From positions 16,724 through 80,723 of the IMG/VR virus record IMGVR_UViG_3300031857_015617: a stretch of DNA of 64,000 nucleotides, one strand, 5' to 3'. Position numbers and translations under genes: made by a program. The number at the start of each line of letters is the position of its first letter. Positions within the stretch are counted from its first letter, which is position 1. The DNA is from a virus. The notes beneath the pieces were generated by a model. That model ran no database searches. It had not been told where the DNA came from and saw nothing but the letters and a program-made list of their open reading frames with translations. Shown piece after piece: positions 18,863 to 61,276 of the stretch.

Positions 18863-19288
18863 ATGAAAAAAAGAATTAAAAGATTTTTTAAAAGAATAAA
18901 ATTAAGATTTTATTTATGGTCAAAAAAAAGAGACATTATACCTTCGTATGAGGAAAATAAAACACCATATGAAAAAACTTGTTTTTTAATTTGTCTTAAA
19001 GCAATCAAAGATAAAAATACAAAATTTATGATTGCCCCCGTCTCAAACAAGAGGTATATTGAAAATAAAGATATGGATATCTTTATCACTTTAGATGAAG
19101 GGACTGTTGATTTAACAAATCACATTTATCATTATAATGTAAAGTTAACCAATAGGGATTGGGAAAGAATTACGTATGTGTTTGATTTAGAAGCTGAGAA
19201 AAGAAGATTAGAATATGAAGAAAAAATTAATTCTCAGATAAAAAATTCTTTACACGATGTCTTAAAAAGAATTTCTGATTTCAGATAG
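18863..19288 (+). CDS. Basic protein of unknown function
   Basis: This 141-residue protein has a very basic N-terminus (MKKRIKRFFKRIKLRFYLWSKK, written in two parts: MKKRIKRFFKRIK and LRFYLWSKK), a beta-containing middle (FMIAPVSNKRYI...DMDIFITLDEGTVDLTN) and a charged helical C-terminus. The 3' end overlaps the convergent gene on the minus strand by 27 bp. No family was recognised. Confidence 0.6.
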   Translation: MKKRIKRFFKRIKLRFYLWSKKRDIIPSYEENKTPYEKTCFLICLKAIKDKNTKFMIAPVSNKRYIENKDMDIFITLDEGTVDLTNHIYHYNVKLTNRDWERITYVFDLEAEKRRLEYEEKINSQIKNSLHDVLKRISDFR

Positions 19289-19972
19289 AACCCTATTAAC
19301 AATATAATCAACAGATTCATTCTTTGGTTTGTATGAAACCATAACTGGTTTTTGTCCTTTACCGGTTTGAGTATCTTTTTTTTCCGCTCTTCTTTTTTGT
19401 TGACAAGCAGATTTTTTTTCCGAATCAGACATTTTACCCGCAACACCGGCCGCTCTACATTTAGGGTATGAACCTTCACTAGCATCAGATCTTCCGCAAG
19501 GTGGGTGTTTACCATTAACCTTTCTACATATATCAACCCAAGGACCCTTTGGTTGTGAAGAACCTTTTGGTTTTTTCTTTTTACCAAACCATACAGCAAG
19601 GTCTTCTTCTAATTCATTTGATTCTTTAATCGGGACTATTTTTTTTCCTTTGCCCGGTGTTGGGTTTAGATTATTTCCGTCTTCATCACTAAATGTTGAA
19701 TTTGGGTGTTTTTTAATATAGTTTGTTGCTTTCTCAGCTTGACGTTCAATTTCCTTTCTTTGTTTTGGTTTTATATCCATTTTCCCATCAAAACTATCAT
19801 ATTGTAATAAAGGACTATCATAATGTGAAACCTCATCTGTAAAAGGACCTAAAGCCGTTTTATCAAAGTTTCTTAATCCTGGTTGTAATGGTATAATATA
19901 AGACCCTCTTGAACCAGTGTTATTACCGGTTGCTTCTTTTAATATTTTCTTTATTATTTCTCTTACATCCAT
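19262..19972 (-). CDS. Putative internal virion protein with LxE propeptide and Cys/Lys-rich domain
   Basis: This 236-residue protein starts with MDVREIIKKILKE|ATGN, a basic amphipathic helix followed by an ILKE|A site like the predicted capsid protein cleavage (LINE|A). Around residues 125-205 is a Gly/Lys/Cys-rich segment (GPWVDICRKVNGKHPPCGRSD, then SYPKCRAAGVAGKMSDSEKKSACQQKRR, here described in parts) of a type I recall from large-phage proteins of unknown function. It shares the design of the gene at 18354. It is convergent with the plus-strand block. Confidence 0.7.
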   Translation of the reverse strand: MDVREIIKKILKEATGNNTGSRGSYIIPLQPGLRNFDKTALGPFTDEVSHYDSPLLQYDSFDGKMDIKPKQRKEIERQAEKATNYIKKHPNSTFSDEDGNNLNPTPGKGKKIVPIKESNELEEDLAVWFGKKKKPKGSSQPKGPWVDICRKVNGKHPPCGRSDASEGSYPKCRAAGVAGKMSDSEKKSACQQKRRAEKKDTQTGKGQKPVMVSYKPKNESVDYIVNRVLSEIRNSF

Positions 19973-19987: not shown

Positions 19988-20206
19988 ATGGAAGATGAAA
20001 AAAAAGAGTTGTACGGAAATCTATTTGGGACTATTGACATCCTATCAGAAGATCATTTAAATATTATGTTAACAACAATGGATAAGGATAGTTCCCTATA
20101 TTTTATTGTGGAGTCTTTGAAAGCCGCACACAAACGTGGTGCTTTCACAATTGGTGAAACGGAAGTAATATCAAAGGCTATCCGGGTGATTTCTAGTATG
20201 GATTGA
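19988..20206 (+). CDS. Small acidic helical protein, unknown
   Basis: This 72-residue protein (MEDEKKELYGNLFGTIDILS...) is predicted helical, with a C-terminal KRGAFTIGETEVISKAIRVI segment. It starts 15 bp from the divergent gene at 19972 and overlaps the convergent membrane-protein gene by 36 bp at the 3' end. No family was recognised. Confidence 0.55.
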   Translation: MEDEKKELYGNLFGTIDILSEDHLNIMLTTMDKDSSLYFIVESLKAAHKRGAFTIGETEVISKAIRVISSMD

Positions 20207-20650
20207 TTTAGTATATAACATTACGTGTACGTGATAAAAACAAAGAACAATAATTGCCCAAGTTTCCATCCAGTATAATCCATCAAAAGTTAAAAAAATT
20301 GTGGACAAAAGATATACCGGTAAGTATAGTCTAAATCTCTTTATTGACCACAAAGGAAACACACACACAATAAAAAAACCGACAGCAAGTACATTATGAA
20401 TTGTGACATAATCCTCAACTGAAAAAACGGTTAAAAGTAAAAGAAGTACTGCTGGTATTCGCCAATGAGGTAAATCAAAAAAGAAATAACTTACAAGTGC
20501 GTTTGTAAAAATAAAAAGTGGTTGTAATGGTGTGTTCCAAGATTGTGAAAGTGAAATTAAGTCTCCACAAGTAAAATAAATAATAAAAGGTTGTAATACT
20601 GCGATTAATGCGGTAAACAACCTTTTATATAGTTCAAAATTACTTATCAT
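20171..20650 (-). CDS. Multi-pass membrane protein, unknown
   Basis: This 159-residue protein has about five to six hydrophobic segments, including LFTALIAVLQPFIIYF, FIFTNALVSYFFF, IPAVLLLLLTVFSV, VLAVGFFIVCVFPLW and TWAIIVLCFYHVHVM. It is probably in the host inner membrane. The start overlaps the stop of the T9SS-like protein gene upstream by 4 bp (ATGA), so the two are likely translated together. It could be a holin-like, superinfection or secretion-related protein, but the sequence does not decide. Confidence 0.65.
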   Translation of the reverse strand: MISNFELYKRLFTALIAVLQPFIIYFTCGDLISLSQSWNTPLQPLFIFTNALVSYFFFDLPHWRIPAVLLLLLTVFSVEDYVTIHNVLAVGFFIVCVFPLWSIKRFRLYLPVYLLSTIFLTFDGLYWMETWAIIVLCFYHVHVMLYTKSIHTRNHPDSL

Positions 20651-22035
20651 CTAATAACCTTTCTCATTGTCCCATCATCATATATTTCTACATAAACATC
20701 AGAAATTTTAAGTTTTTCAGGATCAATTTCCTGACCATTTAAATTAACATATTTAATTATAGTTTTTTTACTTTCTAAATCTATATTATTTATAGTTATT
20801 GGTCCAAATGTGTCATAAACACCATTTAAATCATATTGTTGTAATCTATAATAGTTTATGTTTGGGTCAACTTTAAAATCAACAACATCGTAGGTTATTT
20901 CTTGTGTTGAATTTCCTGCTGCGTTTAGTGTTGCGATAGTAGTCCATATTTCACCATCTCTACTTTTTTGTAGGTTAAAGTGGCTTGTATTTTGTTCAGA
21001 TACAGTTGACCAAAATAAATAATTATTTGGACCTTTATTCACACCATTAAAAGTTGATAATTCAACAGGTAATGGGTTTGGATCTGAAAGTGCTATTTTT
21101 ATATTTGGTCTAAGACTAGATTGTACACCATTTGACGTGGGATATGACGCATCTTGGTGACTATACCCTACCGTATTAGTTTTTGATGTGTAATAAAACC
21201 AAGGTTCGTCAAAAGTATATGTACCATTTCTATTTTCCCATTTTATAAGTAAGTTATTTGTGTTATTCCAAGGAAATGGTGTTTGTAGTGCAATTTCGTT
21301 CCACCCAATATTCCAAGTAACACTACCATCATAAACCAATGTATAGTTAGATGATACATAATTTGTTTGTGCGTTTTCACTAACCGGTGAGGGTAATACT
21401 GATAGTGTTGTGTGACCCATATATATTTTTTGGTTTGTTGCGGTATAAGGACCTGGTGTGGTTGGGTCTACTTGGAAACGTATTTTTGTAATGTTTCCTT
21501 CTGTATTAATTTCCGACTGTAAATAAATTATTTCAGACCACCCATATTTGTAGTAATGATTGGCGGGTGCGTTATAAACAACACCTTCACCACTACCTAT
21601 ACTTACTATGGTACTTCCTGCCGTACTACCTTTTTGATACTTAACTATTGCACTAGCGTTTATGGTGTTACATGTACTTGAGGCAGACCAACGAGTTAAA
21701 AGTATTGAATAATTACCTGAAGTAGTACAATACCATGTTATTTCTGATTGTGTATTAAAATAATCATCACTCCACGCTAAAACTGAACCTCCAGTTGCTG
21801 TAGAATATAAACGAAGATATGTATCTACCGTAGTTTGACCTACAGTAGAAAAGGTGTATTCATTACCCGCTTCAGCATAAAAATTAAACGCTCTACGACC
21901 AGCGGCATAAGCTGGCGTATATTGTAAGGTTGTTGTTGGAGTAATTGTCTCATTTGTTGTTGCGGTATTACAATACTGTGACAATCCTGAAAAAGTCATT
22001 AATAAAGTAAAAATAAATAATATTAAATTTTTCAT
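20647..22035 (-). CDS. Secreted protein with PPC-like domain and T9SS-like C-terminus
   Basis: This is a 462-residue protein. The start at 22035 (MKNLILFIFTLLMTFSGLSQ, a Sec signal peptide with SQ cleavage region) is preferred over an upstream Met at 22083. After it comes a beta domain resembling bacterial pre-peptidase C-terminal domains (FNFYAEAGNEYTFST, DTYLRLYS, LAWSDDYFNTQSEI). A Bacteroidetes-type NPLPVELSTFNG...FNLQKSRDGEIWTTIATLNA module follows. The end VNLNGQEI...VYVEIYDDGTMRKVIR resembles a type IX secretion sorting tail. It is likely exported by the host to the outer surface. Confidence 0.75.
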   Translation of the reverse strand: MKNLILFIFTLLMTFSGLSQYCNTATTNETITPTTTLQYTPAYAAGRRAFNFYAEAGNEYTFSTVGQTTVDTYLRLYSTATGGSVLAWSDDYFNTQSEITWYCTTSGNYSILLTRWSASSTCNTINASAIVKYQKGSTAGSTIVSIGSGEGVVYNAPANHYYKYGWSEIIYLQSEINTEGNITKIRFQVDPTTPGPYTATNQKIYMGHTTLSVLPSPVSENAQTNYVSSNYTLVYDGSVTWNIGWNEIALQTPFPWNNTNNLLIKWENRNGTYTFDEPWFYYTSKTNTVGYSHQDASYPTSNGVQSSLRPNIKIALSDPNPLPVELSTFNGVNKGPNNYLFWSTVSEQNTSHFNLQKSRDGEIWTTIATLNAAGNSTQEITYDVVDFKVDPNINYYRLQQYDLNGVYDTFGPITINNIDLESKKTIIKYVNLNGQEIDPEKLKISDVYVEIYDDGTMRKVIR

Positions 22036-22053
22036 AACTACGTTTTTATTATT

Positions 22054-22060
22054 ATAAATA
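22054..22060 (-). promoter_or_regulatory. Putative late promoter element TATTTAT
   Basis: TGATATTTATAATAATAAA on the minus strand lies 18 nt before the start at 22035. It supports late expression of a secreted host-type protein. Confidence 0.4.
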
Positions 22061-22102
22061 TCAAAAATAAATGTTATAATCAAGTTTTTTGATGTTATTT
22101 GT

Positions 22103-22480
22103 TTATACTACCACTTTTAAGTCGGTAAAACTAAGTTCTATATTATCAGAAACAACAAATTCAAATAAATTATTTGACAATATCTCCAAATCTTTACCTA
22201 ATTCAAGTAGGTCTTCGTCAGATTCCTCATAAAACCAAATAACATTATTTTGTTTAAGATTGATTAACTTAATTAAGTGGAGTATAGAATTGGTGTTAAT
22301 GTGATTTAATTTTACCATAATTGTTTTTATCTCATATTTTTTAATTTGGTTTATTATTAATGACCAAAATAATTCTGGTTCAAACAATATTGATTTACCC
22401 TCAATACTCAAAGTATTGTTGTTATGATTAAAAACAACTTTTGGTGTTGTATTAGTTTTTTCTGATAGTGTTGTTCTCAT
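22103..22480 (-). CDS. SiaC-like (DUF1987) regulatory phosphoprotein
   Basis: This 125-residue protein has TPKVVFNHNNNTLSIEGKS near residues 12-30, matching the TPxVxFdxxxgxLxIxGxS opening of DUF1987/SiaC proteins. VKLNHINTNSILHLIKLI at 56-73 is equivalent to the phospho-acceptor segment (NTSS type) of SiaC, with Thr63 as the candidate site. In Pseudomonas, SiaC is switched by SiaA/SiaB and activates a diguanylate cyclase. The phage protein might interfere with or mimic such a host switch. It overlaps the next upstream gene by 4 bp. Confidence 0.6.
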   Translation of the reverse strand: MRTTLSEKTNTTPKVVFNHNNNTLSIEGKSILFEPELFWSLIINQIKKYEIKTIMVKLNHINTNSILHLIKLINLKQNNVIWFYEESDEDLLELGKDLEILSNNLFEFVVSDNIELSFTDLKVVV

Positions 22481-22800
22481 TTTTTTATTTTTATTTCATA
22501 ACCAAAAAAGGCCGTTAATATTTCTTCTTCATCCTCTTTAACTAAATCATCTTCACAAAGATTTAATATTTCAGACAGAGTTGTTTTGTCTTTTATTTCA
22601 TCAGTTACTTTTTGTTTAAACCTCTGAACCCCCCTAATCATTTCTAAAGTTTCTTCAATATCACTTATGGATTTTATATTTTTATCGTTAGAACTTTTAT
22701 TTATCTCATCTAATAGGTCCCGTATAACTTCCCAACAATGGTCATCCACCATATTTATAACCCTAATTTTAGCCTCTTCAAGAATAAGTTCTATTTTCAT
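22477..22800 (-). CDS. Helical acidic protein, partner gene of the SiaC-like protein
   Basis: This 107-residue, predicted all-helical and strongly charged protein (IELILEEAKIRVINMVDDHCWEVIRDLLDEI...) has an acidic stretch CEDDLVKEDEEEIL before a C-terminal FFGYEIKIKK. Its 4-bp overlap with the SiaC-like gene suggests a functional pair. No family was recognised. Confidence 0.6.
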   Translation of the reverse strand: MKIELILEEAKIRVINMVDDHCWEVIRDLLDEINKSSNDKNIKSISDIEETLEMIRGVQRFKQKVTDEIKDKTTLSEILNLCEDDLVKEDEEEILTAFFGYEIKIKK

Positions 22801-22805
22801 TTTTT

Positions 22806-24791
22806 TTAACTTTTATATATTCTTTTTATTACCCCACCCTCAACCATAAAGTAAAAACCAACGGGGGCATTATCAAATCTAATTTGTTTTCCGTTCATAT
22901 CTAAAACAATTTCTGGATTTAATTTTTCATTAGTGTTTATTATTTCTCCTATATTTAATATTTCTTCTGTTAAATTAGATAAAATTACATTCTCAGAGGA
23001 CATACATCCATTATCATCTGTAACTAATACCTCATAAAAATCCGATACCACACTATTTAAATCCTCACTAATTTCACCATGATTCCATTGATAGTTATAC
23101 GGTTTAGTACCACCAACCACATCTAAATCAATTGATCCAAAGGTATTTTGAGTTGGTTGTACGTAATTTAAACTTGTAACAAGTAGTTCGGGTTCGTTAA
23201 TTGTAAAATCTTCCATTACAACACACCCTGATTGGTCTGTTACATTTACCTGATAGTACCCAGGTTTTAAATTTGTCATAGTACTTAATGTGTTACCATT
23301 TGACCATTCATAAGTTAAAGTAGAATCACCACCTTGTGTTGAAACACTTATCCCACCATTTTCAAAACCATAACACGTTACATGATTAATTTCGGATTGT
23401 GTTGTTATTTCACTGTAAGATTCAATTTCTCTTTCTGAGTAAAATTTACAACCTTTAACATCTTTAACTTCTATACTATAAAAACCAGTAGAATCTACTT
23501 CTATTTTATCATTAGTACTACCATTAGACCATTCAAAAGATAAAGGAACTTGACCTGTAATGTTGTTAAATTTTGCCTGTCTTTTTGAATCAACACAATT
23601 AACATCAGTTATTAGTTCACCCTCAATCGTATTGAATTTTTTTGCCATTAAAACAGCTTTATAAGAATCTAATTTACCTGAACCTAACATACCAATATAG
23701 TTTTGGTTAACTTCATAAATTGAGCTATCAGCAGTTTCTTTAAGAATATACTCAATTTGATCGGGAGTTAAACAAGGATTAACAGATAACATCAAAGCTA
23801 CGGTTCCTGAAACAAGTGGTGTGGCGAAAGAAGAACCATTTCCTGTAACATATTGACCCGGTGATGTTGACAACACTATGTCGTATCCAGGAGCCGAAAT
23901 ATCTACTTTATTATTGTGTTGGTGTGTTGAATTTGGGTTGCCGATGAATCTTTCGTGATTGTTGTTCGGTCCAACAGATGTAACTGAAATTACGTGTTCG
24001 TATGATGCAGGATAAACTTCGTTTACTGACCCACCACAAGTACTTCCGTTACCAGCGGCTGCTATTATAACAGAACCGTTGTTATGAACCTCATTTATAA
24101 CTTGTTGTGCGTAATAGTTAAAATAACAACTAGAAGCCCAACTAGCGTTTATTACTCTTGCTCCTGAATAAGTTGCTTCAAGTAATTCATTATAATCCAT
24201 AACTCTTAGTTGTAACTTTGAATTGTAACCAATTGAACTTTTACCGGCGAAATTATTTGTGTTACCTGCAGCTGTTATAGCTACCGCGGTACCATGAGTA
24301 TAATCAGTACTATAGTTGTCAATTGTTCTATAAGTAATTTTACCACCAAGATCTTCGTGATTGTGGTAATAGTTTGCATCTGTAATAGCAATAACTACTG
24401 AAGTATCTCCGTGTGTGATATCCCAAGCTTGTTCAGCGTTTATTGAATTAAGTGCGTAATCGTACATAAAAACTGAGATGTCGTTTGGGGTGTCAAGAGT
24501 TTTATATTCAGGACCTAATTCAGGTTTAACAAAATTATTATTTTTAGAAGTTCTTACTAGTAATTCATTAACATCACAATTACAATTTATTTGATAAACT
24601 TGTTGTAATTCAGAATTATGTGATGATGGAAACGCCTTTTTTATTTCTGTAATACTAAGGTCTGAGATTGAATTTAAAACCTCAGTTCTTTTTGATTCAT
24701 AATTTGGGATTTTTACCCATACGTTGTCCTGAGATAAGACACTAATTGTTGTTGTTAAAATTGTTAAAATTGTTACTATTAAATTTTTCAT
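22806..24791 (-). CDS. Secreted subtilisin-like serine protease (S8) with SprB-like repeats and T9SS-like tail
   Basis: This is a 661-residue protein. The start at 24791 opens a signal peptide (MKNLIVTILTILTTTISVLS|Q); a Met 13 codons upstream is less likely. The S8 catalytic residues are all present: Asp138 (VIAITDAN), His166 (THGTAVA), oxyanion Asn248 (AAAGNGS) and Ser321 (GSSFATPLVSGT). After about residue 405 are at least two SprB-like repeats (FEWSNGSTNDKIEVDSTGFYS; YEWSNGNTLSTMTNLKPGYY). The C-terminus ...VLDMNGKQIRFDN...GFYFMVEGGVIKRIYKS resembles a T9SS sorting tail. It probably acts on the host surface or in the medium. Confidence 0.85.
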   Translation of the reverse strand: MKNLIVTILTILTTTISVLSQDNVWVKIPNYESKRTEVLNSISDLSITEIKKAFPSSHNSELQQVYQINCNCDVNELLVRTSKNNNFVKPELGPEYKTLDTPNDISVFMYDYALNSINAEQAWDITHGDTSVVIAITDANYYHNHEDLGGKITYRTIDNYSTDYTHGTAVAITAAGNTNNFAGKSSIGYNSKLQLRVMDYNELLEATYSGARVINASWASSCYFNYYAQQVINEVHNNGSVIIAAAGNGSTCGGSVNEVYPASYEHVISVTSVGPNNNHERFIGNPNSTHQHNNKVDISAPGYDIVLSTSPGQYVTGNGSSFATPLVSGTVALMLSVNPCLTPDQIEYILKETADSSIYEVNQNYIGMLGSGKLDSYKAVLMAKKFNTIEGELITDVNCVDSKRQAKFNNITGQVPLSFEWSNGSTNDKIEVDSTGFYSIEVKDVKGCKFYSEREIESYSEITTQSEINHVTCYGFENGGISVSTQGGDSTLTYEWSNGNTLSTMTNLKPGYYQVNVTDQSGCVVMEDFTINEPELLVTSLNYVQPTQNTFGSIDLDVVGGTKPYNYQWNHGEISEDLNSVVSDFYEVLVTDDNGCMSSENVILSNLTEEILNIGEIINTNEKLNPEIVLDMNGKQIRFDNAPVGFYFMVEGGVIKRIYKS

Positions 24792-24830
24792 AATGTGTAT
24801 ATTTTTTATTGTATACACATAGTTAGTCAT

Positions 24831-24962
24831 ATAATGGTATAAAGTCCTTTTGTGGGGGGTATAGTATTTTTAAATTAAGGGGTACGCTCTATAGTAGTAT
24901 AAGTACTACATACGAATGGTTAGGTAAAAATACTTAAATGGGGTAAAATTTTGTATGATAGT
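24831..24962. other. Intergenic spacer with inverted repeat
   Basis: This 132-bp spacer lies between two secreted-protein genes. AGTATTTTT at 24863-24871 is the reverse complement of AAAAATACT at 24926-24934. GGGGTA occurs on both sides. It could be a weak hairpin or regulator site. No ORF or T-tract terminator was seen. Confidence 0.25.
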
Positions 24963-25964
24963 TTATTTCATAGTTTTTTCTATAAAACCATCATCATATA
25001 TAAGTAAATATATTTCACCTTCTTTCATATTTAACACCGCTTGTCCCATTAAATTTGTGATTTTTATAAGTATTCTATTCTTATGTTCTTTAATGTAGAT
25101 AATACTAAGATTTTCAAATTTACCATCATAATCTGTTTGTCTTAAAATAAAATATCCAGAACCAATCGTATTTCTAATTGAATATTTATGTTTACCTTCA
25201 GATGGTACATTATATTTTGGTTCAAAATTATACCCATCCATTGAGTGTAATATTGTGTAATAGTCATTATTATATTCTGAATATATGTCCCACCATAAAC
25301 TATCTCTATCTCCTTCAAAAGAGATTAAACTTACCGGTAATGGGGTTGTCATTTGCCACAATTCAAAATTATCTAACCACCATTCTTCACCTACGGAATT
25401 AACTCTAACATAAACTCTTGCGGTAAATTGTGTTACGTTTGTAAATTTTAAACGTATATCAGAATAAGTTCCGTTTTGTGCTGAATATGTTGTGAGTGTC
25501 CCGCTTGCTGTTTTTTGTATTAATGTTGTGTTGTAATTCCATAACGCATTATCATAACCATTAATTTTTATCTCTTGAACCAAAGTAGTATTATCGGTAC
25601 TAATATAAAGTAATACGTAATCGGCAATATCAACACCAGCACTTAAAGATGACGATGAACCAAATTTATAAGACCCTAATCTAAATCTAAATTCATACTC
25701 AAATCCTTGGTCTAATCCTGTGATATTTGGTAAAACATAGACCCCTTCTTCAATGTTTGACGTTCCATTACCGGTACCGATTAAAGCTGCTGATGATGTA
25801 CTACTAACAAACGCGTTGGCGTAATAACCGGTATTATTTCCATACCCAACTGACCATCCGCCTAACCAATTGAATGATTCAATATAGTCGTATTTTATTA
25901 AAGTTTGTGAAAATAAAAATGGTGGGAAAAAAACTATTAAAAAAAATAAAAAAAACTTTTTCAT
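24963..25964 (-). CDS. Secreted beta-sandwich protein with T9SS-like C-terminus
   Basis: This 333-residue protein starts with the signal peptide MKKFFLFFLIVFFPPFLFSQ. The middle is a jelly-roll type domain (FEYEFRFRLGSYKFG...VLLYISTDNTTLVQEIKING...RVYVRVNSVGEEWWLDNFELW), like carbohydrate- or adhesion-related modules of Bacteroidetes surface proteins. It is followed by PLPVSLISFEG and a C-terminus ITNLMGQAV...GEIYLLIYDDGFIEKTMK. The tail matches that of the 20647 gene (IYDDG...K). It is likely surface-exported by the host type IX system. Confidence 0.75.
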   Translation of the reverse strand: MKKFFLFFLIVFFPPFLFSQTLIKYDYIESFNWLGGWSVGYGNNTGYYANAFVSSTSSAALIGTGNGTSNIEEGVYVLPNITGLDQGFEYEFRFRLGSYKFGSSSSLSAGVDIADYVLLYISTDNTTLVQEIKINGYDNALWNYNTTLIQKTASGTLTTYSAQNGTYSDIRLKFTNVTQFTARVYVRVNSVGEEWWLDNFELWQMTTPLPVSLISFEGDRDSLWWDIYSEYNNDYYTILHSMDGYNFEPKYNVPSEGKHKYSIRNTIGSGYFILRQTDYDGKFENLSIIYIKEHKNRILIKITNLMGQAVLNMKEGEIYLLIYDDGFIEKTMK

Positions 25965-25971
25965 ATTAACA

Positions 25972-25978
25972 ATAAATA
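25972..25978 (-). promoter_or_regulatory. Putative late promoter element TATTTAT
   Basis: TCTATTTATTGTTAATATG on the minus strand; 7 nt separate the element from the start at 25964. Confidence 0.4.
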
Positions 25979-26061
25979 GATAAAAAGGTTAAAGAATGTA
26001 ATGATTTATTTAATTATTAACAATAACTTATCATATATGATATTTTATTTAACAAAATAAA

Positions 26062-26087
26062 AAAAGGTCAGATTTCTCTGACCTTTT
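26062..26087 (-). terminator. Rho-independent terminator after the capsid gene
   Basis: AAAAGGTCAG (26062-26071) pairs with CTGACCTTTT (26078-26087) around a 6-nt loop. On the minus strand the stem is followed by a T-rich tract. It lies 22 bp past the capsid gene stop. Confidence 0.85.
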
Positions 26088-26108
26088 CAAGGGTTATTTA
26101 AGTTTTGA

Positions 26109-27965
26109 TTATCTCAATTCTCTTAAATCAAATGTACGAACTCCATCAACAGTGATACGAGCGTAGAAACGGTTGTTAACCATTTTCTTAGCGTATCTTG
26201 TCATAATACCTTTGATAGGTGTGAAGTTGAATGGGTTGTACATTGTAGGTGTTAACTGAAGAGGTACGTATGGTGCGTAGATGTATCCAGTGTCTAACAA
26301 TGATGTTCCTTTGTGACCCAACAAGATTGTGTTTGGTGGGAAGTAAGGATCACGATAAACTTGGTAACGTCCAGCAAGAGTACCAACTCTTTCAATACCC
26401 ATATTGTATTGGTCTTGCTCAGGAGACGCGTTAGATACGTGGAAGTATTCTAAATCGTCAAAGATAGCTGAAACTTCAGAAGAAACAACAATCCAGTTAG
26501 CACCACCTCTAAGTGTAGACTTGTGGATTTGTGCAGACAACTGGTTGATTGCTGTAATCAACGTTTGGTTCCAGTCTTTCTGTGTGTAAGAAGTAGTCAA
26601 AGACAATCTTCTCCATCCATTGTAATCCCAACGTAGGTTCCATGCAGCACCTTTACGAAGGTCTCTTAGGATTTCACGGTCAATTTCCGCAGCAACTTGT
26701 TCTGAAAGAAGAGCAGTAAGCTCAGCTTCAGCATCAATGTTATGGAATGCCGCAACGTCTTGAGCAAGCTCTGGAGACCATTGTGCTCTTAATTTTCTTT
26801 CAGTAACTGATACTGTAACAGACTCAAGGTCAAAAGAAACCTCTCCGATTTTTTCTTCAAACTCTAGTTCTTCGTAACGTCTCCAAACAGCAGTAAATGA
26901 TGTTGCAGATGTGATAGCAGAAAGAGTAGAACCAGTGTACCCATCAAGTGAAGTGTCACCACAAGATGCACAAGCAGGACAAGAAAGATCTACTTCAAGA
27001 ATGATACAACCATTAGCGTTACAGATATTGTTAAAAGAACCACCATTTCCATCAACTGGGAATGTAGTTTGATATTGACTACCATAGTCAACAATTCCTT
27101 TACCATATTTTTGAGTTACAACTCTAAATAAAAGTGGTGATGCACCAACTGTAGGAACTGGACATACGTTAGCAGCATCAAATCCTAATCCTGTATTAGT
27201 AAGGATTTTAAGGTCAGAAAGGAAAGATTCTGTATCAATTTCATTTCCGTCAGGTCCGATAAGTTTACCAGCACCTGGGATGTTACTCCACCCACAAAGT
27301 TTGATAAGAACTTTTCTTGTGTTACCAACATAAGCAGCGTCGTCATTGTTAGCATCAACTAAGTCACCATTTGACCATTTTACAACAGTAGCCGCTGCCG
27401 TGATAGCAGAAAAACGACCTTTAGAATAATCAAATAGACCAGCAGGATCCAATCCTGGCTCAGCTCCTTCGTAGAATAAATCATAAAGATTTTTTGAGAA
27501 AGGTGCGTTAGCGTTAGGTGCTGTATCAGCTCCTGGGTAACCTTGACCCGGTACGTTATAACCACCATTAACCGCTTCAGGAGAACCAATTGGTGGATAG
27601 TGAACACTACCAGCTTCATTTGGGTTATATCCTTGGATACGAGGTACAAAGTAGAACAATTTACCAATTGGTAAGTTCATAGCTTGTACTGATACGATAT
27701 CGTTAGCTAACAATTTAGAGAAAACTCTTCTAACGATAGGGAAAACAACCGTTTCAAAAGCTCCGTTTGAACCTTCTGAAGTTGCTTCGTTAATTAGGTG
27801 AGATGCTTGGTTCTCATATAACTGAGCCACGTTCTCTTTTAGATGACCTTTAAGTCCATCAAGGAATCCTAATTTATCCCATTTGTTAATTGTATCTTCT
27901 TTGATAACTTTAAGGTGCTTAAGACCGATGTTACCAACAAGACCAGATTCTAATAATGCTCCCAT
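26109..27965 (-). CDS. gp23: Major capsid protein, T4 gp23-like
   Basis: This 618-residue protein has an N-terminal region like gp23, including NVAQLYENQASHLINEATSE. FPIVRRVFSKLLANDIVSVQAMNLP follows at about residues 75-100 and is diagnostic for T4-type capsid proteins. LINE|A at residues 57-61 (cut after Glu60) fits the (L/I)xE prohead protease site. T4 gp23 is cut after Glu65. The middle holds an insertion with a CPACASCGDTSLDG cluster. It has its own terminator and upstream promoter-like element, as expected for the most abundant product. It lies last in the head operon, as in T4. Confidence 0.95.
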   Translation of the reverse strand: MGALLESGLVGNIGLKHLKVIKEDTINKWDKLGFLDGLKGHLKENVAQLYENQASHLINEATSEGSNGAFETVVFPIVRRVFSKLLANDIVSVQAMNLPIGKLFYFVPRIQGYNPNEAGSVHYPPIGSPEAVNGGYNVPGQGYPGADTAPNANAPFSKNLYDLFYEGAEPGLDPAGLFDYSKGRFSAITAAATVVKWSNGDLVDANNDDAAYVGNTRKVLIKLCGWSNIPGAGKLIGPDGNEIDTESFLSDLKILTNTGLGFDAANVCPVPTVGASPLLFRVVTQKYGKGIVDYGSQYQTTFPVDGNGGSFNNICNANGCIILEVDLSCPACASCGDTSLDGYTGSTLSAITSATSFTAVWRRYEELEFEEKIGEVSFDLESVTVSVTERKLRAQWSPELAQDVAAFHNIDAEAELTALLSEQVAAEIDREILRDLRKGAAWNLRWDYNGWRRLSLTTSYTQKDWNQTLITAINQLSAQIHKSTLRGGANWIVVSSEVSAIFDDLEYFHVSNASPEQDQYNMGIERVGTLAGRYQVYRDPYFPPNTILLGHKGTSLLDTGYIYAPYVPLQLTPTMYNPFNFTPIKGIMTRYAKKMVNNRFYARITVDGVRTFDLRELR

Positions 27966-59230: not shown

Positions 59231-61276
59231 ATGGCAATAGAATTCATTGATGACAACGACAAGAACAAGAAAAAAAGTGATAGTGGAACTCCGGTTCTAG
59301 ACAACTTTAGTAAAGACTTAAATAAGTTAGCTCAAGAAGGTAAATTAGACCCTGTAATAGGTAGAGAAGATGAAATTATTAGAATTGCACAAATTTTATC
59401 TAGAAGAAAGAAAAACAACCCTATTATTATCGGTGAACCAGGTTGTGGTAAAACAGCAATTGTAGAAGGGTTGGCAATGATGATTCATAGTGGTGAATGT
59501 CCTAAAAATCTTTCAGAGAAAAGAATTGTTTCCCTTGAGATGAATTCAATTGTTGCCGGTACAAAATATCGTGGACAATTTGAGGAAAGAATGAAAGTAA
59601 TAATTGAGGAACTTCAAAGTAATCCAAACATTATTCTTTTTATTGATGAGATTCATACAATGGTTGGTGCTGGTAATAGTTCTGGTTCACTTGATGCCTC
59701 AAACATCTTTAAACCGGCCCTTTCTAGGGGTGAAATCCAATGTATTGGTGCTACAACCCTTGATGAATATAGAAAGCATTTTGAGAAGGATGGAGCTCTT
59801 GAGAGAAGATTCCAGAAAGTAATTGTAGAACCATCAACAAAGGCTGAAACTTTTCAAATTTTAAAAAATAGTAAAGAAAAGTATGAAGAACATCACAAGG
59901 TAACATATTCAGACGAATCACTTCTTTTATGTGTAGAACTTGCCGATAGATATATTACAGATCGTGAGTTTCCGGATAAAGCTTTTGATATTATTGATGA
60001 GGTTGGGTCAAGAATGCAAATTGATATTAAACTTCCTGAAAGTATTGAAAATCTAAAACAAGAACTTCTTGAAATTAAAAAGGAGAAGTCTGACGTTATA
60101 AAAAAACAGAAATACGAAATGGCTGCTGAGTTAAGGGACCGGGAAAAATCAGTAATGTCATCACTTGATGCCGAAAGATTAAAATTTGAGGAAGAACTTA
60201 GAAATAGTAAAAGAGTAATTCCGGAAGATTTAATTTATGAGGTTGTTTCTAAAATGACTAAAATCCCGGTAAGCAAAATTAATGTTGACGAGAAAAACTC
60301 TCTTGTTAATTTAGAGAACGCACTAAATAGCTATGTAATTGGTCAGGCTGAAGCGGTAACAAAAATATCAAAATCCATTAGAAGAAATAGAATTGGAATT
60401 AAGGACCCAAATAGACCAATTGGTTCATTTATCTTCCTTGGGTCAACCGGTGTTGGTAAAACATATCTTGCAAAGAAACTAGCAAAAGAAATTTTTGGTA
60501 GTGAAGATAGTTTGATTCGTGTTGATATGTCTGAATATCAGGAAAAACATACTATATCAAGGCTTATCGGTTCTCCTCCAGGATATGTTGGTCACGAAGA
60601 GGGTGGACAGCTTACAGAACAGGTTAAAAATAAACCATACTCTGTTATCTTATTTGATGAGATTGAAAAGGCAAATAAAGATATCTTCTCAACACTTCTT
60701 CAAATGCTTGATGACGGGCATATGACCGACGGACTTGGAAGAAAAATTAACTTCAAAAATTGTTTAATTATTATGACATCAAATATTGGTGTTAGAAAAT
60801 TACAGGATTTTGGAACTGGAGTTGGGTTTAAATCAAATAGTAGTGAAGCAGTAAGAGAAGAAGAAAAAAGAGATATCCTCAAAAAAGAATTAAGTAAGTT
60901 CTTCGCTCCAGAATTCCTAAATAGAATTGATGACGTTATTGTCTTTAACTCGCTTAAAAAAGAGCACGTTGACCGGATTGTTAAAATTGAAATTGAGAAG
61001 TTAGTTAACAGAATTGAGTCAATGAAATATAAAATTACATACGATGAGTCAGTTGTTGAATTGATATCTGAGGTTGGGTTTGATGAACAATTTGGTGCAA
61101 GACCAATTAAAAGGGCAATCCAGGATAAAATTGAAGACCTTATCTCTGAGAAAATATTACTAAATGAAGTTCTAGAAGATGTTGATTATAAATTGACAGT
61201 TGTAGATAAGGAAATTAAGATTGATGTTCTTATTGAGAATAAACCTAAAAGGGGTAGAAAGAAAAAGGAGGGTTAA
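59231..61276 (+). CDS. clpC: ClpC-like AAA+ unfoldase lacking the N-domain
   Basis: This 681-residue, two-ring Clp ATPase has Walker A1 GEPGCGKT at 68-75, Walker B1 ILFIDE at 135-140, pore loop TKYRG, a UVR-like motif ([15 protein letters not shown]) at about 291-305, and Walker A2 GSTGVGKT at 404-411. Pore loop GYVG and the loop GVGF (VGF at 531-533), the type that docks ClpP, follow. Cellular ClpC has an extra 150-residue N-domain for adaptors, absent here. Long matches to Bacteroidetes ClpC blocks ([25 protein letters not shown]) suggest a host origin. The basic tail is [11 protein letters not shown]. Confidence 0.92.

What the first reader, a model, noticed from the sequence alone, without database searches (positions are those of the whole stretch)
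20647..25964. Three phage-encoded proteins that look like type IX secretion cargo
Each of three genes has a Sec signal peptide and a C-terminal tail with the T9SS pattern (N/D-xx-G-Q/K..., then YDDG or EGG and a basic end: MRKVIR, IEKTMK and IKRIYKS). Two also have the PLPVxLxxFxG module seen in Bacteroidetes surface proteins. Phages rarely encode host-secreted cargo. These could alter cell adhesion, block superinfection, help release or digest surface layers. Two of the three have late-type promoter elements.
Basis: partly seen in the sequence, partly recalled or inferred. Interest (0 to 1): 0.85.

Follow-up and report, generated by a model that had tools for sequence, protein, structure and literature searches.

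The report
Phage proteins wearing host export tags
This virus of a Bacteroidota bacterium carries three genes, right behind its capsid gene, for proteins that look built to be shipped to the outside of the infected cell through the bacterium's own type IX secretion machine, using a short export tag that present annotation models do not recognise.

Summary
Other evidence rescues the reading. (1) The ~40-aa tail recurs in viral proteins with different passengers: 65 of 65 hits are C-terminal and 61 have a signal peptide (background 14%). (2) The same tail ends many secreted-type proteins in small-genome Flavobacteriales: 78 of 298 genomes of the order, and 6-34 copies in each of 12 genomes of one family, nearly all with PorV. 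(3) In a related phage the protease orthologue (55% identity over 606 aa) sits in the same place and ends in a canonical TIGR04183 domain instead: a natural tag swap. (4) AlphaFold gives a three-stranded sheet, as reported for short sorting domains of Prevotella intermedia. The genes fill a variable slot between the capsid gene and a conserved flank gene; 16 of 50 related phages carry short-tag cargo there. Phage-encoded T9SS cargo was known (Cryophage, crAss-like); the short tag, slot and swap are new. Secretion is untested.

The parts
20647..22035 (-). Cargo 1 (462 aa): signal peptide, two beta-rich domains, fn3-like PLPVEL module, short C-terminal tail
   Evidence: full-length relatives L004-L006 at 60-65% identity
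20788..21072 (-). fn3-like 'PLPVEL' module of cargo 1
   Evidence: alignment A1; seven-strand fold, pLDDT mostly 80-94
20650..20769 (-). short C-terminal sorting tail of cargo 1 (40 aa), three predicted strands
   Evidence: A2
22806..24791 (-). Cargo 2 (661 aa): signal peptide, S8 subtilase, SprB-like repeats, short C-terminal tail
   Evidence: PF00082 8e-30, PF13573 1e-9; orthologue with canonical CTD
23721..24401 (-). S8 subtilase domain; triad aligned to Ak.1 protease at D140/H168/S323 of P0002 numbering
22974..23549 (-). SprB-like repeat region of cargo 2 (approximate)
22809..22931 (-). short C-terminal tail of cargo 2 (subtype DMNGKQI...GFYFMVEGGVIKRIYKS)
   Evidence: similar tail in phage orthologue L187
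24963..25964 (-). Cargo 3 (333 aa): signal peptide, MAM/jelly-roll-like domain (weak), fn3-like module, short tail
24966..25079 (-). short C-terminal sorting tail of cargo 3 (38 aa), three predicted strands
22054..22060 (-). TATTTAT late-type element before cargo 1
25972..25978 (-). TATTTAT late-type element before cargo 3
26061..26088 (-). terminator-like hairpin between capsid gene and cargo slot
26109..27965 (-). major head protein, upstream border of the slot
   Evidence: phrog_138 2.4e-66
20171..20650 (-). multi-span membrane protein whose start overlaps the cargo 1 stop; follows cargo genes in several phages
22103..22480 (-). SiaC-family (PF09345) protein between cargo genes
   Evidence: 2.8e-14
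22477..22800 (-). 107-aa protein of unknown family between cargo genes
   Evidence: no confident match
19262..19972 (-). conserved flank gene, downstream border of the slot

Best explanation
The three genes are a late-expressed cargo cassette. Each product crosses the inner membrane by the Sec signal peptide and is then carried over the outer membrane by the host's type IX secretion system, which recognises a short (about 40 aa, three-strand) C-terminal sorting tail keeping the second half of the type A domain (motifs B, D and E). The proteins end up on, or are shed from, the surface of the infected cell: a subtilase, and two proteins whose beta-rich/fn3 domains look binding-like. Most likely role: remodelling the host surface late in infection (cutting or masking adhesins and receptors), so that progeny get free and neither progeny nor rival phages re-adsorb. 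Shown: anatomy, tail conservation, use of the same tail by T9SS-positive flavobacteria, slot conservation, tag swap. Inferred: T9SS-dependent secretion and the role. The confidence given is for the export route; for the specific role (release / receptor masking) it is about 0.4.
For: Signal peptides in all three and in 61 of 65 tail-bearing viral ORFs. Tail profile A2 hits 78 of 298 Flavobacteriales genomes at E<=1e-7 and 12 of 12 genomes of one family with 6-34 copies each, at the C-terminus of signal-peptide proteins; that family has PorV in 11 of 12 genomes (9 above the cut-off) and 20-43 canonical CTDs per genome, and SprA is present in both genomes first found to carry the tail. The P0002 orthologue L184:5628-7676 (55% identity, 606 aa) has TIGR04183 at 40.6 bits (cut-off 23) and PF18962 at 43.9 (cut-off 27) in place of the short tail; L105 has the same fn3 module followed by a long CTD-like tail. 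A slot protein of another phage (L187, 229 aa) matches TIGR04183 from position 23 to 71 at 17.8 bits, so the short form lines up with the later part of the model. AlphaFold tails of cargo 1 and 3 are three strands at pLDDT about 80-90, as described for P. intermedia short CTDs, which are cleaved and glycosylated like long ones (PMC11969387). Canonical CTDs above the cut-off occur in 8 of 35 related viral records.
Against: No curated sorting-domain model matches the three tails. Profile-profile comparison of the short tail with canonical phage CTDs is weak (hhalign probability 5-9%), so common descent with the type A domain is not shown by sequence. The host of this phage is unknown. No secretion experiment exists. 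The role of the cargo is inference only.
Confidence: 0.8

Rival explanations
1. They are virion decorations or adhesins (Ig/fn3 type proteins are common on phage heads and tails), made late with the capsid and never secreted; the tail is only a fold remnant.
For: Location directly behind the major head gene and late-type TATTTAT elements on two of three; fn3-like domain.
Against: N-terminal signal peptides in 61 of 65 tail-bearing ORFs, an active-site-complete subtilase, canonical T9SS CTD on the orthologue, and absence of any cargo in most related phages speak against a structural part.
Confidence: 0.1
2. Secreted by Sec, but the tail is not a T9SS signal: the proteins stop in the periplasm or leave with lysis, and the tail serves another C-terminal function.
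For: Models of T9SS CTDs do not match; hhalign to canonical CTDs is weak.
Against: Tail use in hosts with PorV/SprA and its exchange with canonical CTDs on orthologous passengers.
Confidence: 0.1
3. Same export route, but a different role: enzymes and binders for scavenging polymers or cutting a surface layer to aid adsorption of progeny to neighbours, rather than masking or receptor removal.
For: Passengers vary widely between phages (GEVED, CUB, galactose-binding-like domains, subtilases), as would suit many tasks.
Against: Late-type elements leave little time for nutritional benefit (inference).
Confidence: 0.3
4. Host contig misassembled onto a phage.
For: Host-like domain content.
Against: Identical block in three further contigs and the same slot with other cargo in many phages.
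Confidence: 0.01

Closest known systems
T9SS type A sorting domain (TIGR04183 / PF18962)
   Same: Sec signal peptide, extreme C-terminal position, motif order N/D-x-x-G-(Q/R/K), G-x-Y-like strand, basic end; found in its place on an orthologous phage protein
   Different: about 40 instead of 70-80 residues, lacks the first half with the YPNP motif, not recognised by either model
Short T9SS CTDs of Prevotella intermedia (PMC11969387)
   Same: 40-55 aa, motifs B, D, E, three-strand sheet; short and long CTDs coexist in one organism
   Different: here in phages and in Flavobacteriales; that paper states P. intermedia is the only species reported with both forms
Cryophage T9SS cargo (PMC7468147)
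   Same: phage genes with T9SS type A domains and variable passengers
   Different: canonical CTDs; the paper calls it a unique occurrence; no short tail described in the passages read
crAss-like cluster 2 T9SS-domain ORFs (PMC6949934)
   Same: phage genes with T9SS sorting domains beside head genes
   Different: BACON passengers, gut phages, canonical domain annotation

Membership tests
T9SS type A cargo (TIGR04183/PF18962) | match to the curated sorting-domain model | tested here: not met
   no match over the tails
T9SS type A cargo (TIGR04183/PF18962) | Sec signal peptide | tested here: met
   sequence of all three; rule-based count 61/65 for tail-bearing viral ORFs
T9SS type A cargo (TIGR04183/PF18962) | seven-strand Ig-like CTD | tested here: not met
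   tail has three strands in cargo 1 and 3
Short T9SS CTD (P. intermedia type) | 40-55 aa at the extreme C-terminus with motifs B, D, E | tested here: met
   A2: invariant G12, Y30, D32, G33; basic end; motif equivalence judged by eye
Short T9SS CTD (P. intermedia type) | single three-stranded sheet | tested here: met
   (cargo 2 not modelled)
Short T9SS CTD (P. intermedia type) | found in organisms with PorV and SprA | tested here: met
   hosts with the same tail; host of this phage unknown
Short T9SS CTD (P. intermedia type) | cleavage and surface attachment or release dependent on T9SS | not testable with these tools
   needs experiment
S8 subtilase (PF00082), cargo 2 | D-H-S triad and model match | tested here: met

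The most novel reading that the evidence does not exclude
A short T9SS export tag, invisible to current models, is in wide use in streamlined Flavobacteriales and in a large clade of their tailed phages; the phages keep a late-expressed slot behind the capsid gene into which they swap differently folded cargo and either tag form, so that infection recoats the host surface.
Probability: 0.6. Interest if true: 0.75.

Novelty: new variant of a known kind. Interest (0 to 1): 0.62.

Why it matters
It would show that Bacteroidota phages routinely use the host's type IX secretion system as a surface-display route, with a minimal tag that annotation pipelines miss, so both phage and flavobacterial secretomes are under-counted. 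The natural exchange of a long for a short tag on the same protease offers a direct test of what the type IX system needs for recognition. It also gives a concrete handle on how phages change the surface of flavobacteria.

Tried and rejected
Profile search with TIGR04183 and PF18962: no match to the three tails. hhalign of the short tail against nine phage canonical CTDs: weak. Foldseek of both models against the PDB: only generic Ig/fn3 hits, low TM-scores, N-terminal domains of low confidence. Sequence search of solved structures for cargo 1 and 3: nothing. Genome scan with the whole 140-aa module: only two hits, but it used one narrow peptide pattern, so the tail-only profile was used instead. 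Misassembly rejected. The idea that the tail is a phage-only invention was rejected. P0001 homologues in the annotated phage collection: only four unannotated huge phages. Paper searches for a documented role of T9SS surface proteins in phage adsorption gave no passage that I used.

Full report
What is there. The window is part of an 80.7-kb virus record. Three minus-strand genes follow the major head gene (26109-27965; phrog_138). Cargo 3 (24963-25964), cargo 2 (22806-24791) and cargo 1 (20647-22035) each begin with a signal peptide ending in SQ and end in a basic, Y-x-D-G or E-G-G type tail. Between cargo 2 and cargo 1 lie a 107-aa gene and a SiaC-family gene. A small membrane protein gene overlaps the stop of cargo 1. 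Cargo 2 is an S8 subtilase with SprB-like repeats; its D, H and S residues line up with those of Ak.1 protease.

TIGR04183 and PF18962 do not match the tails.

The tail is a real, portable unit. A search with cargo 1 and then with its C-terminal 140 residues found 200 viral relatives, 80 kept. Passengers differ, but nearly all share a fn3-like PLPVEL module and the tail KKIVKYINLxGQEVxPxxxxGxxIEIYDDGTMxKxIR. A profile of the tail alone (A2, 37 positions) hits 65 distinct complete viral ORFs; all hits end at the C-terminus and 61 have a signal peptide by a simple rule, against 148 of all 1066 ORFs in the same loci. These loci were chosen by similarity to cargo 1, so the number of tails is not a random sample, but the signal peptide was not selected for.

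Bacteria use the same tail. In 297 Bacteroidota genomes A2 is rare (5 with a hit at E<=0.01), but in the order of G035 (a Flavobacteriales MAG) 78 of 298 genomes have hits at E<=1e-7, mostly genomes of 0.8-2.3 Mb, and in its family all 12 genomes have 6-34 hits each. The hits sit at the very end of secreted-type proteins. That family has canonical CTDs (20-43 per genome) and PorV (11 of 12 genomes, 9 above cut-off); SprA is present in both genomes first found with the tail. This makes the tail a genome-wide C-terminal signal of T9SS-positive bacteria. It resembles the short CTDs of Prevotella intermedia, 40-55 aa, predicted as three strands, with motifs B, D and E, which are cleaved and glycosylated like long CTDs; the authors call that species the only one reported with both lengths (PMC11969387). 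The AlphaFold models of cargo 1 and cargo 3 give exactly three strands in the tail at pLDDT about 80-90, after a well-predicted fn3-like domain. The N-terminal domains are low-confidence.

Natural tag swap. In a related phage (G005; L184, same region as L237) the slot behind the capsid gene holds an orthologue of cargo 2: 55% identity over 606 residues, then instead of the short tail a full canonical domain (TIGR04183 40.6 bits, cut-off 23; PF18962 43.9, cut-off 27). The next gene also has a canonical domain, and two further genes have short tails. Another phage (L187) has a cargo 2 orthologue with a tail like that of cargo 2, and a 229-aa protein whose short tail lines up with positions 23-71 of TIGR04183 below the cut-off. 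L105 has the same fn3 module followed by a long CTD-like tail (15.0 bits for TIGR04183 and 19.9 for PF18962, both below the cut-offs). Two 630-kb phages also carry canonical domains. By profile-profile comparison alone the short tail is only weakly similar to canonical domains, so descent from the type A domain is likely but not proven; the exchange on one passenger is the stronger argument.

A cargo slot. The genes lie between the capsid gene and a conserved gene (window 19262-19972). To avoid choosing by cargo, loci were fetched by the capsid protein (at least 599 relatives, the 80 closest kept). In 50 loci the interval is complete; 16 hold a short-tail cargo, one of them with canonical cargo as well, and the others hold homing-endonuclease-like or other genes, or almost nothing. 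So the slot is variable and the cargo is accessory. In other members (G004, G006, G007, G009, G010) the tail-bearing gene lies far from the capsid gene.

Expression. TATTTAT occurs within 60 nt of 15 of 54 gene starts (expected 2.6, sd 1.6, maximum 8 in 500 simulations), among them capsid, scaffold, prohead-protease and terminase genes, and cargo 1 and 3 but not cargo 2. The sigma-70 scan found no excess of promoters.

Most likely working. Sec export, then type IX export by the short tail, then display or release at the surface late in infection. The step from anatomy to secretion is inferred; it is well supported by host use and by the tag swap. The role is less certain: a surface protease with adhesin-like repeats and two proteins with binding-like folds would fit removal or masking of receptors and adhesins, which helps release and prevents re-adsorption. 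No result here tests that.

Novelty. Phage-encoded T9SS cargo is known from Cryophage (PMC7468147) and crAss-like phages (PMC6949934). What is new, as far as the searched open library shows, is the short tag in phages and Flavobacteriales, the cargo slot behind the capsid gene, and the exchange of long and short tags on one passenger. I rate it a new variant of a known kind.

Noticed in passing
22103-22480: Phage-encoded SiaC-family (PF09345) protein between the cargo genes; SiaC is a regulatory phosphoprotein in bacteria.
   Followed up: no
20171-20650: Multi-span membrane protein, start overlaps the cargo 1 stop; relatives follow cargo genes in L024, L056, L187, L188, L191, L193, L219, L250 (55% identity to L187). 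May be a functional partner.
   Followed up: partly
L225:12900-15602: Phage-borne 900-aa protein with signal peptide and carboxypeptidase-regulatory-like start and beta-barrel-like end, resembling a TonB-dependent receptor (judged by eye).
   Followed up: no
L265:8442-12318: Slot with a 264-aa signal-peptide protein, a 193-aa secreted protein and a 774-aa secreted subtilase-like protein ending HIHYSDGTVEIKKISVN, a further tail subtype below threshold.
   Followed up: no
L189:4984-5679, L191:12176-13885, L242:11979-12656: HNH/homing-endonuclease-like genes (by eye) sit in the same slot behind the capsid gene, perhaps driving its turnover.
   Followed up: no
window, 15 gene starts: TATTTAT element 11-46 nt before many structural genes: likely late promoter element of this phage clade.
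   Followed up: partly
Flavobacteriales genomes G035, G332-G342, G350 and others: Streamlined Flavobacteriales carry many proteins with the short tail besides canonical CTDs; NCBIfam gave no match over its cut-off to the six host tails tested.
   Followed up: partly
59231-61276: 681-aa ATP-dependent protease-like protein (phrog_4871, 5.9e-239).
   Followed up: no
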